Shown: positions 5,716-24,081 of the stretch, piece by piece | How the letters are laid out: every line of letters starts with the position of its first letter | How positions within the stretch are numbered: position 1 is the first letter of the stretch | NCBI GenBank assembly: GCA_030583665.1 | Contig: CP129469.1 | Location: 1,426,001-1,490,000, forward strand | Direction: 5' to 3' | Length of the DNA: 64,000 nt | From: Candidatus Jettenia sp. AMX2 | GTDB lineage: Bacteria > Planctomycetota > Brocadiia > Brocadiales > Brocadiaceae | Position numbers and translations under genes: made by a program | Notes under the pieces: generated by a model | Told to the model about the DNA's origin: nothing | The model's database searches: none | What the model saw: the letters and a program-made list of their open reading frames with translations, nothing else

Positions 5716-6999
5716 ATGAACGTAACAGTTGAAGATACAGGTCCTTGTAAAAAAGTCTTAAAGATTGAAATACCCAAAGAAGTTGTCGATAGCGAATTTG
5801 AAAAAAAGACCGTAGAAGTGTGTGGTTCTGTGGAATTGCCTGGCTTCAGAAAGGGGCGCGTACCCCGAAAATTAGTTGAAAAACGTTTTGGGTCTCAAAT
5901 TAAGGATGAAGTGAAGCAGAGTGTTGTGAGTGAGTACTATCAAAAAGCGCTGGAGGATTACAAACTGAATCCGGTCGGGAATCCGATGTTTGGCGATATA
6001 AATTTCGAGGTTGGGCAACCTCTTAATTTTGATGCAACCGTGGAAGTATGGCCGTCGTTTGAAGTTGACCATTATAAAGGCGTTATTTTGAAGAAAAAGT
6101 CAAGTATGGTAACTGAAGAGGACATGCAGAAAGCATTGCATAGCATGAGTATCCGGAAAGCACAGTTAACTATTGTTAAAGACGGAAAGGTAAATAAGGA
6201 AGATCAAATTATCTGTGATTTCAAAATGGAGACAGACGGAAAGAATATCGTGGAAGATGAAAATATTGAAGTTTTTGTTGCAAATGATGTGATAATTGGC
6301 GATGTACCGGTGTCTGATCTTGCAACAAAGATGGAAGGAGCAGAATCAGGTGAGGAACGAATAATTGATGTGAAATTACCCGACACTTTTGCACAAGAGG
6401 AGTATCGGGGAAAGGATGCAAGATTAAAACTTACCGTAAAAGAAATAAAACGATTATCGGTTCCGGAAATTAATGAAGATTTTGCAAAAACATTAGGTTT
6501 TGAATCACTTGAAGATTTAAAGGAAAAAGTACGAAAACGTATTGAAGTTGAAAAAAAGAAGTGGGCTGAAGATGATTTAAGAAATCAGCTACTTGACATC
6601 CTTCTGGAACAAACAAAATTCGACTTGCCTCAGGATTTTGTAGCTTACCATACAGAGAAAAGGGTGTATAAACATCATTTGGATATGTTGAATAAAGGAA
6701 TACCTTTAGAAGAAATACAGAAACAAACAGAAAATATAAAAAACGCATCTGCCGAGTCTGTAATGAAAGAATTGAAGTCGTCGCTGATACTGAATAAAAT
6801 TGCCGAAAAAGAGAAAATATTTGTTACAGAACAGGAAGTGGAGCAACAAATTGCTGATATTGCCCGTGCTTATAACATTGATCCCTTAAGAGTCAGAAAA
6901 CAGTTGGAACGACAGGGGAACTTGTCGCTTTTACGGAACGAGATACGGGAAAACAAGGTATTAAATTTCCTCCTGAAAGAGGCTAATATAACAGAGTAA
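5716..6999 (+). CDS. tig: Trigger factor, ribosome-associated chaperone
   Basis: Ribosome-bound folding chaperone. The N-terminal domain has the ribosome-docking loop GFRKGRVPR near residue 42. A diverged FKBP-type peptidyl-prolyl isomerase region and a long charged alpha-helical C-terminal domain (KLTVKEIKRLSVPEINEDFAK onward) follow, giving about 427 residues, normal for the family. I take ATG 5716 because family members begin MxVxVE and AGGG lies 7 nt upstream. ATG 5701 is in frame but sits 1 nt after its AGGAAAG. The stop codon abuts clpP at 7000, the common tig-clpP operon, so cotranscription is very likely. Confidence 0.96.
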   Translation: MNVTVEDTGPCKKVLKIEIPKEVVDSEFEKKTVEVCGSVELPGFRKGRVPRKLVEKRFGSQIKDEVKQSVVSEYYQKALEDYKLNPVGNPMFGDINFEVGQPLNFDATVEVWPSFEVDHYKGVILKKKSSMVTEEDMQKALHSMSIRKAQLTIVKDGKVNKEDQIICDFKMETDGKNIVEDENIEVFVANDVIIGDVPVSDLATKMEGAESGEERIIDVKLPDTFAQEEYRGKDARLKLTVKEIKRLSVPEINEDFAKTLGFESLEDLKEKVRKRIEVEKKKWAEDDLRNQLLDILLEQTKFDLPQDFVAYHTEKRVYKHHLDMLNKGIPLEEIQKQTENIKNASAESVMKELKSSLILNKIAEKEKIFVTEQEVEQQIADIARAYNIDPLRVRKQLERQGNLSLLRNEIRENKVLNFLLKEANITE

Positions 7000-7683
7000 A
7001 TGAAAGGAAGTTTTGTGTATAAAGATTACCTATCATATTTAGAGAATGGCGAGTTTCCTGATACAGGATCAAAGACACTCCATAATGCCCTTTTTGTTCC
7101 CTATGTTATAGAAAAAACCGGTTATGGGGAGAGGCATTATGATATATTTTCAAGGTTATTGAGAGACCGTATTATCTTTATTGGTTCACCTATAGAAGAT
7201 ACACTTTCTAACCTTGTAATTGCACAGATTCTTTTTCTCCAGAACGAAAACAAAAATCAGGATATCAATATTTATATCAATTCACCAGGTGGTTCAATAA
7301 CCGCCGGGCTTGCAATTTATGATACTATGCAGTTTGTGCAATGCGATATTGCAACGTTTTGTATTGGCCAGGCTTTCAGCATGGCTGCAATTCTTTTAGC
7401 TGCAGGAACAAAGGGGAAGAGGTATGGTTTGCCGCATACGCGTATTATGCTGCATCAACCGTGGGGAGGAATGAGAGGTACTGCTACTGATATTAGTATT
7501 CAGGCTGAAGAGATATTGAAGATGAGAAAATCATTAAACGAGATCCTTGTGCGACATACAGGTCAACCCGTGGAACGTATTGAAGTGGATATTGACCGGG
7601 ATTTTTATATGTCATCTCAGGAAGCAAAAACATATGGCCTGCTTGATGAGGTAATAGAAACCCTGCGGGAAAAAAAGAAATAG
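7000..7683 (+). CDS. clpP: ATP-dependent Clp protease proteolytic subunit
   Basis: Serine peptidase that forms the tetradecameric chamber of Clp proteases. The Ser lies in [11 protein letters not shown], where the family norm is GQAASMG, so the flanking residues differ but the Ser is kept. The His is in HQPWGG, and an Asp lies in the DRDFYMS segment. [18 protein letters not shown] is the typical oxyanion-loop region. At 227 residues it is slightly longer than Escherichia coli ClpP, with an extended N-terminus that includes [21 protein letters not shown]. The start codon follows the tig stop directly. No clpX is in this window. Confidence 0.95.
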
Positions 7684-19491: not shown

Positions 19492-19863
19492 ATGTTTGTT
19501 GGTATTGATATTGTAGGAATTAAACGGATTGAAAAATTGTTTTCTTCTCACGAGGGTTTCCTAAAAAGGATTTATACTGAAAAAGAGGTTGAATACTGTA
19601 AGCCCAAAAAAAACAAATACCAACATTTTGCCGTGCGTTTTGCAGCAAAAGAGGCTGTCTTTAAAGCTTTAGGGACAGGTTGGATTGGTACAATGAAATG
19701 GACAGATATTGAGCTTTTAAATGACGCATTAGGGAAGCCATACCTGAACCTTTATGGAAGTGTGAAAGAACTGGCAGACAAAAAAAATATTAGTACCGTT
19801 TCTGTATCGGTATCTCATTGTCATGAGTATGCGGTTGCCCAGGTGCTGTTGGTAACGAAATAA
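19492..19863 (+). CDS. acpS: Holo-[acyl-carrier-protein] synthase
   Basis: Transfers phosphopantetheine from CoA to apo-ACP. 123 residues. FVGIDIVGIKRIE at the N-terminus holds the Mg-binding Asp, RFAAKEAVFKALGTG is the CoA/Mg motif with its Glu and Lys, and VSVSHCHEYAVAQV is the C-terminal signature. Its position just before a radical SAM enzyme and two ketosynthase-like genes is suggestive. A terminator separates it from them, so it forms its own transcription unit. Confidence 0.95.
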   Translation: MFVGIDIVGIKRIEKLFSSHEGFLKRIYTEKEVEYCKPKKNKYQHFAVRFAAKEAVFKALGTGWIGTMKWTDIELLNDALGKPYLNLYGSVKELADKKNISTVSVSVSHCHEYAVAQVLLVTK

Positions 19864-19962: not shown

Positions 19963-21450
19963 ATGAAAAAACTTATACTTATTAATCCTCATCCGATTGG
20001 AAACGTTGGAGAAGAGAATGTCTCCGTGTTAAATCAGATGCCGGTGAATCTTGGGTATTTAAAAGTGTTGACGCCACAAAACTGGCAGGTTGATATCATT
20101 GACGAAACTCAGGAACTGGCCATTGATAATATGGGTGATATTACCTTTGGCGATGCGGATTTGGTAGGTATTACGTCAGTAAGCTATCAGGCACATCGTG
20201 CATATCAGATAGCTGCTGCCTGTAAAAAACGGGGCATGCCGGTGATCATGGGCGGAATTCATGCTACCAGCTATCCGGAAGAGGTAGCTCAATACGTAGA
20301 TTGTGTTGTTACAAGGGAAGCCATAACCCTTTGGACAAAGATTATTGCCGACTTTGAAAAAGGCTCTCTTCAAAAAAGGTACGATGGAGAATTAACGCCA
20401 ATGGAGCTTTATAATACCTTGAGGCCTGACAGAGAATACTTAAAAAATAAATATAAATACCGGTATTCTGGTATTATAACAACTGCAGGATGCCCCTTTA
20501 GTTGTGAGTTTTGTTCTGTACCACAATTCCAGGGTAAAAAGTACCGGGAAAGGCCTATTGAGGATATCCTGGACGAATTGGAGTCAATAAAAGGCCAATA
20601 CCGTGGCCTCATATTAACAGATGAAAATTTTTACGGTCACAGCAAAAAATCAAATGAAAGGGTACGTGCGCTTTTTAAGGGAATGGTAGAGAGGGGGATT
20701 TATCAGAATTGGTTTGGCTTTACTTCTCTTAATATCTACAAAGACGATGAAACACTTGAATATATGGTGAAAAGCGGATGTGTCGGGGTACTCATCGGGA
20801 TTGAATCTATTGATGAAGAAGCCTTGAAAACGATGAACAAGAATGTAAATTTACGCATTACGATAGAAAAGTATTTTGAGGCTATTGCCAATATCCGGAA
20901 ACATGGCCTTGCTGTATGGGGAACTATGGTTTTTGGGAATGATACAGATACCCCTGATACCTTTAAACAAGTTGCCGATTTTGTATTGAATTCCTCTGTG
21001 GATATCATGACGTGTGGTATTCTCTGCCCATTTATTAATACGCCGCTTTATCACAGGTTGAAAAGTGAAAACAGGTTGTTTAGAACCAATTTTCCTGATG
21101 ACTGGAAATATTATACATCCCATCATCTTACGTATATCCTTAAAAACATGCCTCTCCAGGAATTAATTAATGGTTTTCAATATTTATATGACAAGATTTA
21201 TGCTACAGAAGTGTTGCGCCAAAGATTCCAGAATGCCAGGGAAATACTTGGTAAGAATAATATGAATGCCGCAATGTTTGCATTCAGGGTCAATCTGGAC
21301 TGGCAGAATGTATACCAGCATCTCATCCAGAACCTAAAAGAGCTACAGGTTTCCGGATATTATGATGAAGTATTAAAGCTTTATAACCAGTCAAAAAAAT
21401 ACGGGGATAAAGAAAAGTTAATACCGGTAGGAATAGTAGGTAGTAGGTAG
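19963..21450 (+). CDS. B12-binding-domain radical SAM protein
   Basis: About 495 residues. ATG 19963 has GAGGG 7 nt upstream; a TTG at 19945 is the alternative. The N-terminal cobalamin-binding-like Rossmann domain (KKLILINPHPIGN, DLVGITSVSYQAHRAYQIA, PVIMGGIHATSYPEE) lacks an obvious DxHxxG. The radical SAM core has CPFSCEFCSVPQF, with cluster Cys spaced CxxxCxxC, and GVLIGIESIDEEALKTMNK. The architecture is that of BchE/HpnJ-type methylases and cyclases. In this window it heads a unit with two ketosynthase-like genes. The substrate is not visible; a lipid-chain modification is an inference from its neighbours. Confidence 0.88.
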   Translation: MKKLILINPHPIGNVGEENVSVLNQMPVNLGYLKVLTPQNWQVDIIDETQELAIDNMGDITFGDADLVGITSVSYQAHRAYQIAAACKKRGMPVIMGGIHATSYPEEVAQYVDCVVTREAITLWTKIIADFEKGSLQKRYDGELTPMELYNTLRPDREYLKNKYKYRYSGIITTAGCPFSCEFCSVPQFQGKKYRERPIEDILDELESIKGQYRGLILTDENFYGHSKKSNERVRALFKGMVERGIYQNWFGFTSLNIYKDDETLEYMVKSGCVGVLIGIESIDEEALKTMNKNVNLRITIEKYFEAIANIRKHGLAVWGTMVFGNDTDTPDTFKQVADFVLNSSVDIMTCGILCPFINTPLYHRLKSENRLFRTNFPDDWKYYTSHHLTYILKNMPLQELINGFQYLYDKIYATEVLRQRFQNAREILGKNNMNAAMFAFRVNLDWQNVYQHLIQNLKELQVSGYYDEVLKLYNQSKKYGDKEKLIPVGIVGSR

Positions 21451-21474: not shown

Positions 21475-21510
21475 AAAAGTCCCATAGTGACAATTGAGAT
21501 ATCTGAAAAT

Positions 21511-22722
21511 ATGCCAAAAGTAGTAATTACGGGATTAGGTTTGGTCACCCCTGTCGGGATAGGTGTTAAGGAGAGTTGGCAGTCCTTTATCACCGGTAAA
21601 GACGGGGCCAACGAAATGAGGTCATTTGATACCTCTTTCTATAAGGTTCACCGTTCTTGTGAGGTAAAAAATTTTCAACTTGATGGAGAGTTAGAGAACC
21701 AGATAAAAGAAAACACCATTCATAAATACCTCTATTATGCAGCACGTGAGGCTTTACATGAGAGCGGCCTCCTCGATAATAAGAGCCACGACAGGGAAAG
21801 GTTTGGCATTGCCGTTGGTACCCTTGCAGCCGAATTAACCCCTTATGAGAGGCTTCAAAGGCAAGATACCTTAAAAAAAGATAACGGTTTCAACCATATT
21901 GTTGCTGCGGTTTATCCTCCGAATTCTCTTACCAGGACCCTTGCGCACTATTTCCATTTTGAAGGACCGGCCATGATCTCACTGAATGCCTGTTCGTCAG
22001 GCAATCATGCCATAGCCTGGGCTTATGACCTTCTTGCAGAAAACAAGCTCGATGTCGTTTTGATTGGCGGTGGAGATATGATTCCCCAGACCGAATTCAC
22101 CCATTTTCACAACCTTAAGGCGCTGGCGCCCAAACGCTGTCAGCCTTTTGATAAAAACCGGCAGGGGCTTATGATCGGAGAAGGGGCGGGAGTGCTGATT
22201 ATGGAACGTTATGAGTTTGCAAAAAAACGCGGGGCTGCTATTATTGCAGAGATGGCAGGATATGGTTTAAGTTGTGACGGATTTCATATGACGGCGCCGC
22301 ATCCTGAAGGTGAAGGGGCTGTAAAATGCATGAGTAACGCGCTAAAAATGGCCAGTCTTTCAGAAACAGATATTGATTATATTAATGCGCATGGTACGGG
22401 AACCCCCCATAATGACAAAACAGAAACAATTGCGATAAAACAGGTATTTAAGGATCACGCTTATAAGATTCCGTGTAGTTCTACAAAATCCATGATAGGC
22501 CATCTTATGGGTGCTGCAAGTGCCGTGGAATCTGTTGTTTGCTGCCTTGTATTAAAGCATGGAATAGTTCCTCCTACAATTAACTATGAGACACCGGATC
22601 CGGAATGCGATCTTGATTATGTACCAAATAAAGCGCGGGAACGAACGTTAAGATGCATCCTTAATAATTCATTTGCCTTCGGCGGTAATAATGCAACGAC
22701 GATATTTAAAAAGCCGGAATAA
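21511..22722 (+). CDS. Beta-ketoacyl-ACP synthase II-type, catalytic (KSalpha)
   Basis: FabF-fold condensing enzyme with the full catalytic triad: Cys 161 in NACSSG, His 294 in AHGTGTPHND and His 331 in SMIGHLMGAA (numbering from ATG 21511). The start is chosen because family members begin MxxVVITGxG; an in-frame GTG at 21487 would add eight residues, and neither has a strong Shine-Dalgarno sequence. It should elongate acyl-ACP with malonyl-ACP. About 400 residues, normal length. It is followed 126 bp later by a second KS-fold protein without catalytic residues, the arrangement seen in KS/chain-length-factor pairs of type II polyketide and aryl-polyene systems. Confidence 0.93.
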   Translation: MPKVVITGLGLVTPVGIGVKESWQSFITGKDGANEMRSFDTSFYKVHRSCEVKNFQLDGELENQIKENTIHKYLYYAAREALHESGLLDNKSHDRERFGIAVGTLAAELTPYERLQRQDTLKKDNGFNHIVAAVYPPNSLTRTLAHYFHFEGPAMISLNACSSGNHAIAWAYDLLAENKLDVVLIGGGDMIPQTEFTHFHNLKALAPKRCQPFDKNRQGLMIGEGAGVLIMERYEFAKKRGAAIIAEMAGYGLSCDGFHMTAPHPEGEGAVKCMSNALKMASLSETDIDYINAHGTGTPHNDKTETIAIKQVFKDHAYKIPCSSTKSMIGHLMGAASAVESVVCCLVLKHGIVPPTINYETPDPECDLDYVPNKARERTLRCILNNSFAFGGNNATTIFKKPE

Positions 22723-22848: not shown

Positions 22849-24081
22849 GTGAAGAAAAGAGTTGTTATTACGGGTATCGGTGTTGTATCTCCCATTGGGT
22901 CCGGGAAAGAGGTCTTCTGGTCAAATCTTATCTCCGGGAAATCTGGTATCGTACCAATACTTTCCCTTGATCTTTCTTCCTATCAATGTAAATACGGCGG
23001 GGAGGTAAAGGATTTACATCCTGAAGTATACCTGGGAAGTAAAGGTCTGAAATATTTAAATAAAGGAACACGGTTCCTGGGTTCTTCCGTTAAGATGGCC
23101 TTGGACGATGCAAGATTGCCGATCAATGGTTCTTTATCAGATCAAATGGGTGTGGTTATCGGTTCATCTTTAGGCAATTTTTCTGAAACGACAGATTATT
23201 TCTACGAAATTATCAGGGAAAATCCATCCGAATTATCGCCCATGCTTAGCTATGATGTTGCATTGAATTCCTCGATCAATTATGTTTCTGTTACTTTCAG
23301 GATAAAAGGACTCGCGCGTACCATATCGGCAGGTTTTACATCCAGCACCGATGCTATAGGTAACGCATTTAATATGATCCGGAGGGATATGGTCAAGGTT
23401 ATTGTTGCCGGCGGAGTTGAACAGATTTCCATCGATTTGTATCTCATATTTTACCTGCGCAAACTGCTGTCAGGCATAGACGGTAAAAAAGAAGTGAGCC
23501 TGCCTTTTGATAAAGAAAGAAATGGCTTTATTTTATCAGAAGGTAGTTATGTAGTGATCCTGGAGGAATTGCAACATGCCCTGGACAGGGGGGCATCTAT
23601 TTACGGGGAGATAAAAGGGTTTGGGAATACCTTTTCGGGCGTGGATTGTTCAGAAAAGGAAAGGATCCGCCGTCTTGAAAATGCCATGTATGCAGCTTTG
23701 GAAGACACTGAGGTAAAAAAGGATGATATTGATGTAATCAGTGCAAATGCAAACGGATGCAGGATGCAGGATGCCGTTGAGGCAAAGGCCATTCAATCTT
23801 TTTATCATCAAACGAACAAACACCTGGCTGTTTCTGCAATAAAATCTAACATCGGAGAGTCTTACGGCACTGCCGGTGCCGCTCAGCTCATAACTGCATG
23901 CATGTCACTGCATGACGGTACGGTACCCCATATTATCAATTACAGGGAAAAAGATCCGGAGGTGAGTTTAAATCTTATCCTGGAGGAGCCTCTAAAAAAA
24001 GAAATAAGGAATGCCATGATAAATAACATGGATTATGAAGGCAATAATTCTTGCCTGGTAGTAAGTAAGTTCTGTAAGTAA
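22849..24081 (+). CDS. Ketosynthase-fold protein without catalytic residues (KSbeta / chain-length-factor-like)
   Basis: 410 residues from a GTG start with AAGAGG 10 nt upstream. It has the FabF fold throughout (VVITGIGVVSPIG, SLPFDKERNGFILSEGSYVVILEE, SAIKSNIGESYGTAGAAQ, NNMDYEGNNSCLVV). All three catalytic positions are changed: Cys to Phe 163 (AGFTSS), His to Asn 300 (SANANG) and His to Glu 337 (NIGES). Such proteins pair with an active KS and set chain length or specificity. The upstream KS is the obvious partner. The intergenic 126 bp contains part of the CATTGCAAGG dispersed repeat, so the pair is less tightly coupled than in Streptomyces. Confidence 0.88.
   Translation: MKKRVVITGIGVVSPIGSGKEVFWSNLISGKSGIVPILSLDLSSYQCKYGGEVKDLHPEVYLGSKGLKYLNKGTRFLGSSVKMALDDARLPINGSLSDQMGVVIGSSLGNFSETTDYFYEIIRENPSELSPMLSYDVALNSSINYVSVTFRIKGLARTISAGFTSSTDAIGNAFNMIRRDMVKVIVAGGVEQISIDLYLIFYLRKLLSGIDGKKEVSLPFDKERNGFILSEGSYVVILEELQHALDRGASIYGEIKGFGNTFSGVDCSEKERIRRLENAMYAALEDTEVKKDDIDVISANANGCRMQDAVEAKAIQSFYHQTNKHLAVSAIKSNIGESYGTAGAAQLITACMSLHDGTVPHIINYREKDPEVSLNLILEEPLKKEIRNAMINNMDYEGNNSCLVVSKFCK

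What the first reader, a model, noticed from the sequence alone, without database searches (positions are those of the whole stretch)
22849..24081. KSbeta has lost all three catalytic residues
Aligned by eye to its neighbour, the active Cys is Phe 163, the first His is Asn 300 and the second His is Glu 337, while the fold motifs are intact. In actinobacterial chain-length factors the Cys is usually Gln; Phe at this position and Glu in place of the second His are different solutions, so this may be an independent KSbeta lineage.
Basis: seen in the sequence. Interest (0 to 1): 0.6.

Follow-up and report, generated by a model that had tools for sequence, protein, structure and literature searches.

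The report
Anammox non-catalytic ketosynthase partner subunit
This gene encodes a ketosynthase-shaped protein that has lost its catalytic machinery and most likely serves as the non-catalytic partner of the active enzyme next door, in a gene set kept throughout the ammonium-oxidising anammox bacteria and thought to help build their unusual ladder-shaped lipids; its missing residues were already reported for a relative in 2009.

Summary
Residues 163, 300 and 337 are Phe, Asn and Glu, where the neighbouring ketosynthase has Cys, His and His. No register shift rescues it, and the fold is predicted intact. It is not new as a fact: Rattray et al. 2009 (Table 2) list Phe/Asn/Glu, plus Lys and Gln at two further sites, for the Kuenenia counterpart Kuste2805. 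New here: Phe163 and Glu337 are invariant in 56 of 56 Brocadiales genomes that carry the gene (Asn in 55). It follows an intact KSalpha, mostly with a B12 radical-SAM gene and a holo-ACP synthase gene upstream. A second, paralogous pair exists, and its solved Brocadia-like relative forms a KSalpha/KSbeta/ACP complex (PDB 9s5h/9s5i). KSbeta is under purifying selection, keeps the basic ACP-docking patch that KSalpha1 lost, and has relaxed only in its catalytic C-terminal half. Best reading: a chain-length-factor-like, non-catalytic subunit of an obligate KSalpha/KSbeta heterodimer in anammox (probably ladderane) acyl-chain synthesis. It forms a well-supported Brocadiales-only clade, but whether it arose independently of actinobacterial CLFs is unresolved (AU p 0.31 and 0.47). 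Function, product and the heterodimer of this exact pair are inferred, not shown.

The parts
22849..24081 (+). KSbeta1: non-catalytic ketosynthase homologue, 410 aa (Kuste2805-type)
   Evidence: Pfam ketoacyl-synt 106.6 bits and Ketoacyl-synt_C 83.5 bits, both over cut-off; below the FabF equivalog cut-off, 310.2 against 493.75
23335..23337 (+). codon of Phe163, in place of the nucleophile Cys163
   Evidence: F in 56 of 56 KSbeta1
23746..23748 (+). codon of Asn300, in place of His303 (FabF numbering)
   Evidence: N in 55 of 56
23857..23859 (+). codon of Glu337, in place of His340 (FabF numbering)
   Evidence: E in 56 of 56
23842..23844 (+). codon of Lys332 (= Lys335 of FabF), kept
   Evidence: K in 56 of 56
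23884..23886 (+). codon of Gln346, in place of Glu349 (FabF numbering)
   Evidence: Q in 56 of 56 KSbeta1 and 19 of 19 KSbeta2
23029..23088 (+). residues 61-80, basic patch matching FabF's region-1 ACP contacts Lys65/Arg68/Lys69
   Evidence: K at 65 in 56 of 56, K/R at 68 in 56 of 56, Tyr at 69; KSalpha1 has K at 65 in 9 of 48 and a gap at 68 in 48 of 48
21487..22722 (+). KSalpha1: intact C-H-K-H-E ketosynthase, the presumed catalytic partner
   Evidence: Cys/His/His kept in 48 of 48 full-length KSalpha1; best PDB match 9s5h_B, 410 bits
19963..21450 (+). B12-binding radical SAM enzyme (Kuste2803-type)
   Evidence: Pfam Radical_SAM and B12-binding over cut-off; found at E<=1e-100 only in Brocadiales, 61 of 75 genomes of the class (its paralogue counted too)
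19492..19863 (+). holo-ACP synthase (AcpS/PPTase), first gene of the conserved set
   Evidence: TIGR00516 101.9 bits against cut-off 59.8; order kept in most relatives

Best explanation
KSbeta1 is the non-catalytic, chain-length-factor-like half of a KSalpha1/KSbeta1 heterodimer. KSalpha1 does the chemistry (acyl transfer to Cys, malonyl-ACP decarboxylation, Claisen condensation). KSbeta1 keeps the dimer-facing and ACP-docking surfaces but no working active site: an incoming acyl- or malonyl-ACP bound for KSalpha1's active site docks largely on KSbeta1's conserved basic patch (Lys65, Lys/Arg68), and KSbeta1's conserved 101-160 region forms the far wall of KSalpha1's acyl pocket and so limits or shapes the chain. 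The Phe/Asn/Glu/Gln set fills and stabilises the dead pocket (His340 to Glu with Glu349 to Gln, Lys335 kept: the acidic partner of Lys335 has moved). The pair, with its B12 radical-SAM enzyme, is one of two paralogous modules in every anammox lineage sampled and probably elongates an acyl chain used for ladderane lipids. Shown: residues, conservation, gene order, order-restriction, purifying selection, predicted fold, loss of the basic patch in KSalpha1, existence of a solved complex of the paralogous pair. Inferred: dimerisation of this exact pair, ACP route, chain-length role, salt-bridge relocation, the ladderane product.
For: KSalpha1 precedes KSbeta1 in 20 of 20 loci examined with flanks, directly in 19 (L046: 4.4 kb between), five families. 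Paralogous KSalpha2/KSbeta2: PDB chains 9s5h_B and 9s5h_C, 8 chains each over the same two entries, 9s5i adding an ACP like the cluster-2 ACP; 9s5h_C is 94.6% identical over 204 residues to KSbeta2 of G015. Conservation in 52 genomes with both genes on one locus: invariant positions in residues 1-200 / 201-410 are 55/26 for KSbeta1, 44/80 for KSalpha1. K at 65 in 75 of 75 KSbeta (56 + 19) against 9 of 66 KSalpha (48 + 18); FabF-like controls K/R in 12 of 15; Streptomyces CLF R in 5 of 5, KSalpha 0 of 5. In AcpP-FabF/FabB most ACP contacts come from the monomer that is not crosslinked, and Lys65/Arg68/Lys69 are region-1 contacts (PMC7138838, passages). AbApeC Arg30/Arg31, proposed for ACP binding, are conserved in APE CLFs (PMC8358021, passages); E. 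coli ApeC has Arg-Arg at FabF 68/69. KSalpha residue 108 (FabF pocket) is Ala in 48 of 48 KSalpha1 and Ala/Gly in 18 of 18 KSalpha2. dN/dS 0.08.
Against: No structure or interaction data for this pair. Region-2 ACP contacts are not kept in KSbeta1 (R127 is Ser in 44 of 56; K128 is Glu in 41 of 56), Lys69 is Tyr in 56 of 56, and KSalpha2 keeps a basic residue at 68 in 13 of 18, so the docking split is partial. The source of each individual FabF contact (which monomer) was not in the passages read. The window operon has no ACP, KR or dehydratase gene. Near-total invariance of the dead site could also mean an active role. In E. coli, the cluster with both KSalpha2 and KSbeta2 together (kuste3603-3608) gave no new fatty acids (PMC4790861, section 19).
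Confidence: 0.75

Rival explanations
1. KSbeta1 is a neofunctionalised enzyme: Glu337, Asn300 and Phe163 form a new active site (for example binding or folding a polyene for ring closure by the radical-SAM partner).
For: F, E, Q and K at the old active site are invariant in 56 of 56; genes stay near a B12 radical-SAM gene; Rattray et al. suggested a different substrate and function.
Against: Acid at 340 with Gln at 349 is also found in KSbeta2 (19 of 19 Gln; 14 Glu and 5 Asp) although its residue 163 is Val, Glu or Thr; the C-terminal catalytic half is the relaxed half; known CLFs also fix a dead-site set (Asp/Lys/Arg/Asp in 5 of 5 Streptomyces).
Confidence: 0.12
2. KSbeta1 is a malonyl-ACP decarboxylase (KSQ-like) that makes starter units.
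For: CLFs were once assigned this role (recalled); it has lost the Cys.
Against: Decarboxylation needs the two His (roles as listed in Table 2 of PMC2649909); neither is present in any of 56.
Confidence: 0.03
3. KSbeta1 acts as a homodimer or with another partner, and its neighbour KSalpha1 is a homodimeric KS.
For: No direct data on this pair; FabF/FabB are homodimers.
Against: The paralogous alpha2/beta2 chains occur in equal number in the same two PDB entries; alpha and beta stay together across the order and duplicated together.
Confidence: 0.08
4. A decaying gene copy without function.
For: All three catalytic residues are gone.
Against: Open frame with no inner stops in 56 genomes, dN/dS 0.08, kept in 56 of 62 Brocadiales genomes.
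Confidence: 0.01

Closest known systems
Kuste2805 of Kuenenia stuttgartiensis (Rattray et al. 2009; 'non-canonical FabB' in Javidpour et al. 2016)
   Same: Same residues (Phe163, Asn298, Asn300, Cys302, Lys328, Glu333, Gln342 in that paper's numbering) and same cluster kuste2802-2805; the counterpart in the Kuenenia-sized genome G032 is 68% identical.
   Different: Nothing essential; the paper names it FabB/FabF-like, and the words 'heterodimer' and 'dimer' do not occur in its text.
PDB 9s5h/9s5i chains B and C (plus ACP chain E in 9s5i), Brocadia-like KSalpha2/KSbeta2
   Same: Sister paralogous pair; KSbeta2 also lacks C/H/H (Val/Asn/Glu in the window genome and in 9s5h_C as aligned).
   Different: Other module: 307 bits to this protein; Val not Phe at 163. 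Entry title and paper were not seen; not found by '9S5H' in the paper library.
Actinorhodin KS-CLF (PDB 1tqy)
   Same: KSalpha/KSbeta heterodimer, beta full-length and without C/H/H.
   Different: Gln/Asp/Arg in place of Phe/Asn/Glu (alignment); 156 bits to this protein; aromatic polyketide context.
Ishigamide KS-CLF Iga11-Iga12 (PDB 6kxd-6kxf)
   Same: Highly reducing (polyene) type II system; ACP docks mainly on the CLF (PMC8358021); its KS chain fits the KSbeta1 model at Z 60.2.
   Different: CLF sequence (Iga12) was not obtained here, so residues were not compared.
Aryl polyene ApeO-ApeC
   Same: Polyene-making KS-CLF heterodimer; ApeC has Arg-Arg at FabF positions 68/69.
   Different: ApeC is about 240 aa with one thiolase domain; KSbeta1 keeps both.

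Membership tests
KS-CLF (type II PKS KSbeta / chain-length factor) | KS fold without the catalytic Cys | tested here: met
KS-CLF (type II PKS KSbeta / chain-length factor) | Gene directly after an intact KSalpha | tested here: met
   19 of 20 KSbeta1 loci of the first regional fetch; in L046 the same order with 4.4 kb between
KS-CLF (type II PKS KSbeta / chain-length factor) | Heterodimer with KSalpha | not testable with these tools
   Only the paralogous pair is solved (9s5h/9s5i)
KS-CLF (type II PKS KSbeta / chain-length factor) | Gln at the Cys position, as is usual in actinobacterial CLFs | tested here: not met
   Phe in 56 of 56; Gln in 4 of 5 Streptomyces CLFs
KS-CLF (type II PKS KSbeta / chain-length factor) | Groups with known CLFs in a tree | tested here: inconclusive
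   Not grouped, but not rejected: AU p 0.31 and 0.466
KS-CLF (type II PKS KSbeta / chain-length factor) | Sets product chain length | not testable with these tools
   Needs enzyme assay
FabB/FabF elongating ketosynthase | Cys-His-His active site | tested here: not met
FabB/FabF elongating ketosynthase | NCBIfam equivalog/subfamily cut-off | tested here: not met
   TIGR03150 310.2 against 493.75; NF005589 303.9 against 387
KSQ-type decarboxylase | Both His kept with Cys changed to Gln (recalled) | tested here: not met
   Neither His, no Gln

The most novel reading that the evidence does not exclude
Ladderane acyl chains are built by two paralogous, highly reducing type-II-PKS-like KSalpha/KSbeta heterodimers, each paired with its own B12 radical-SAM enzyme, a kind of synthase that earlier searches of an anammox genome for polyketide synthases reported as absent; KSbeta1 sets the chain and presents it for radical ring closure, and one reason heterologous ladderane trials failed is that this alpha and this beta were put into different strains.
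Probability: 0.3. Interest if true: 0.8.

Novelty: new member of a known kind. Interest (0 to 1): 0.42.

Why it matters
How ladderanes, lipids with fused cyclobutane rings known only from anammox bacteria, are made is an open question. Reading the 'non-canonical FabB/FabF' proteins as non-catalytic halves of heterodimers turns a list of odd single genes into two testable two-subunit synthases and gives a concrete reason to repeat failed expression work with alpha and beta together: in the 2016 study kuste2804 (KSalpha1) and kuste2805 (KSbeta1) were in different operons (3 and 4), tested individually, and both were found in the pellet (PMC4790861).

Tried and rejected
Shifted register: rejected by gap-free flanking motifs in several MAFFT alignments. 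Decay: rejected by dN/dS and conservation. KSQ decarboxylase: rejected, no His. Independent origin from actinobacterial CLFs: neither supported nor rejected. First structure model from 18 sequences was weak (pLDDT 67.4) and was not used; the 98-sequence model was used. 9s5h did not appear among the 50 rows shown from the fold library, whose entries end in April 2026. Iga12 and AntE sequences could not be obtained with the tools, so these CLFs are missing from the tree. A 2023 paper on an anammox FabZ, recalled by DOI, is not held. The pattern scan of genome contigs used two peptide patterns taken from KSbeta1, so it cannot find KSbeta2-like or remoter relatives.

Rows dropped before counts: the truncated copies L006|2833 and L004|1 (pieces of the same genes); sequences under 380 aa (KSalpha1 54 to 48); 17 rows (long-branch or divergent KSs) in the reduced tree (85 to 68). 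The 47 loci were not used in residue counts (largely the same genomes). KSbeta2 was counted in 19 fetched sequences only, not in all genomes that hold it.

Papers: PMC2649909: abstract, sections 9 and 11 (part 1 of 2) and passages. PMC4790861: abstract, section 19 and passages. PMC8358021, PMC7138838, PMC12053348, PMC9821293: start of abstract in the listing plus passages. Others: listings only. That the CLF reading is not in print was looked for only; the paper behind 9s5h may well state it.

Full report
What is there. The frame at 22849-24081 encodes a complete two-domain ketosynthase homologue of 410 aa. It follows an intact ketosynthase, KSalpha1 (21487-22722), a B12-binding radical SAM gene (19963-21450) and a holo-ACP synthase gene (19492-19863). 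The window lies in a 3.46 Mb single-contig genome that carries hydrazine synthase alpha, so it is an anammox bacterium. The only other genome of its genus in the set, G033, has a contig of 40403 bases, the length of the matching Candidatus Loosdrechtia aerotolerans contig, so the genus is very probably Loosdrechtia.

Phe163, Asn300 and Glu337 stand where FabF has Cys163, His303 and His340. In addition Glu349 is Gln (Q346) and Lys335 is kept (K332). In 56 genomes, one sequence each, F, E, Q and K are in 56 of 56 and N in 55 of 56. KSalpha1 keeps Cys, both His, Lys and Glu in 48 of 48 full-length sequences.

It is already in print. Table 2 of Rattray et al. 2009 (PMC2649909, section 9) gives Phe163, Asn298, Lys328, Glu333, Gln342 for Kuste2805 and Val163, Asn298, Glu333, Gln342 for Kuste3606, and calls them unlike other FabB/FabF. 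Javidpour et al. 2016 call Kuste2805 'non-canonical FabB'. Neither 'heterodimer' nor 'dimer' occurs in the 2009 text.

Distribution. In the class, 56 of 62 Brocadiales genomes have a KSbeta1-grade match (414 bits or more); none of 13 other class members has any match at E<=1e-70 (counts of KSbeta1 grade are mine from its rows). Of the six without, four have KSbeta2 (G012, G024, G043, G055), two neither (G036, G037). G024's copy of the radical SAM gene is cut by a contig end, and four of the six assemblies are 58-86% complete, so gaps are likely for most; G036 (99% complete, but 400 contigs) and G024 (96%) remain noted exceptions. In the phylum sample of 392 genomes the best match outside Brocadiales is 240.9 bits, 34% identity, which falls among ordinary FabFs in the tree. 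A pattern scan of 84,980 species genomes gave 47 loci; the records with an informative name are all anammox genera or Brocadiales (Brocadia, Jettenia, Kuenenia, Loosdrechtia, Scalindua, Anammoxibacter), the rest are titled only as Planctomycetota, Planctomycetes, Planctomycetia or uncultured. Hydrazine synthase alpha was found in genomes of four of the five Brocadiales families, the fifth being one 77% complete genome.

Gene order. In the 20 KSbeta1 loci fetched with flanks, KSalpha1 precedes KSbeta1 in 20 of 20 (directly in 19; in L046 4.4 kb lie between); the radical SAM gene precedes in 18 (the other two are at contig or stretch ends), and the AcpS-like gene was seen in 16. A second module, ACP-FabZ-KSalpha2-KSbeta2-phytoene-desaturase-like-radical SAM, lies elsewhere in the same genomes. 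The tree joins KSbeta1 with KSbeta2 (99/92) and KSalpha1 with KSalpha2 (100/99). With the 11 columns around each of five catalytic sites removed and 17 rows left out the values are 100/100 and 99/98. The radical SAM genes are paralogues too (50-56% identity). So one alpha/beta pair, probably with its radical SAM enzyme, duplicated before the Brocadiales families split.

Role. The paralogous pair is solved: 9s5h_B (alpha2) and 9s5h_C (beta2), 8 chains each over two entries, with an ACP chain in 9s5i; 9s5h_C is 94.6% identical over 204 residues to KSbeta2 of G015. Title and paper were not seen. Conservation within KSbeta1 is moved forward: 55 invariant positions in residues 1-200 and 26 in 201-410, against 44 and 80 in KSalpha1 of the same 52 loci (Fisher p 7.8e-6, descriptive only because positions and genomes are not independent). 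This is what a docking-and-wall subunit without catalysis should show, and ApeC, which has lost the second thiolase domain almost entirely, is the extreme case (PMC8358021).

ACP docking. In AcpP-FabF, Lys65, Arg68 and Lys69 are region-1 contacts, and most contacts come from the monomer to which ACP is not crosslinked (PMC7138838). KSbeta1 and KSbeta2 keep Lys65 in 75 of 75 and Lys/Arg68 in 75 of 75. KSalpha1 has Lys65 in 9 of 48 and a gap at 68 in 48 of 48; KSalpha2 has Gly/Ser at 65 in 18 of 18 but Lys/Arg at 68 in 13 of 18. Mean net charge of columns 60-72 is +2.66 in KSbeta1 and -0.92 in KSalpha1. Against the idea: Lys69 is Tyr in KSbeta1 and His in KSbeta2, and the region-2 residues are not kept. 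The Streptomyces pairs show a weaker version (Arg65 in 5 of 5 CLFs, no basic residue there in 5 of 5 KSalphas). I read this as a partial division of labour: alpha catalyses, beta receives the ACP.

Pocket. FabF Ile108 is Ala in 48 of 48 KSalpha1 and Ala/Gly in 18 of 18 KSalpha2, and residue 138 is Pro in all 66. That position 108 lines the acyl pocket is recalled knowledge, consistent with the I108F mutant structures in the fold list. A deeper pocket ending against KSbeta is an inference.

Dead site. His340 to Glu/Asp occurs with Glu349 to Gln in all KSbeta1 and in 19 of 19 KSbeta2, with Lys335 kept. The acidic partner of Lys335 seems to have moved from 349 to 340. This is an inference from sequence; the solved pair could test it at once.

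Product. Ladderane involvement rests on order-restriction, gene company and earlier proposals, not on chemistry. The 2016 expression work found no new fatty acids. For this module KSalpha1 (kuste2804, operon 3) and KSbeta1 (kuste2805, operon 4) were tested in separate strains and detected in the pellet only, which an obligate heterodimer would explain. But the strain with both alpha2 and beta2 also gave no product, so this is not enough by itself.

Verdict. Observation confirmed, residue pattern already known, interpretation as KSbeta likely, independence unproven.

Noticed in passing
L009:9696-10940 (+), G000: A further atypical ketosynthase beside a 613-aa B12/radical-SAM-like gene: Cys and first His kept, second His is Gln and Glu349 is Gln.
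   Followed up: no
L200:7894-10157 (+), G032: A third tandem pair in a Kuenenia-sized genome: an intact ketosynthase followed by one with Ser/Ser/Asp/Asn/Asn, matching published Kuste3348; the frames overlap by 13 bases. None of the 7 KSs of the window genome has this pattern.
   Followed up: partly
L202:66-1367 and L203:134-1480 (-), other planctomycetes: Ketosynthases with Glu at the Cys site and Asn at the second His, directly next to FabF; residues as in R. baltica NP_866153 of Rattray's table.
   Followed up: no
L204:4305-5699 and 6293-7594 (-), G001: Neighbouring ketosynthases with Phe or Ala at the Cys site, Asp at the first His and the second His kept, in a genome with 33 KS matches.
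   Followed up: no
window:24175-25353 (-): Two tandem paralogues (61% identical) rich in Cys-x-x-Cys pairs, signal-peptide-like starts, no Pfam match over cut-off; the first has no NCBIfam match either.
   Followed up: no
window:25768-27255 (-): Multihaem cytochrome weakly like hydrazine dehydrogenase (47 bits against a cut-off of 900), just after the ketosynthase operon.
   Followed up: no
G000:C1:383159-383473 and 1143185-1143499: Two hydrazine synthase alpha matches with identical scores, suggesting a duplicated gene.
   Followed up: no
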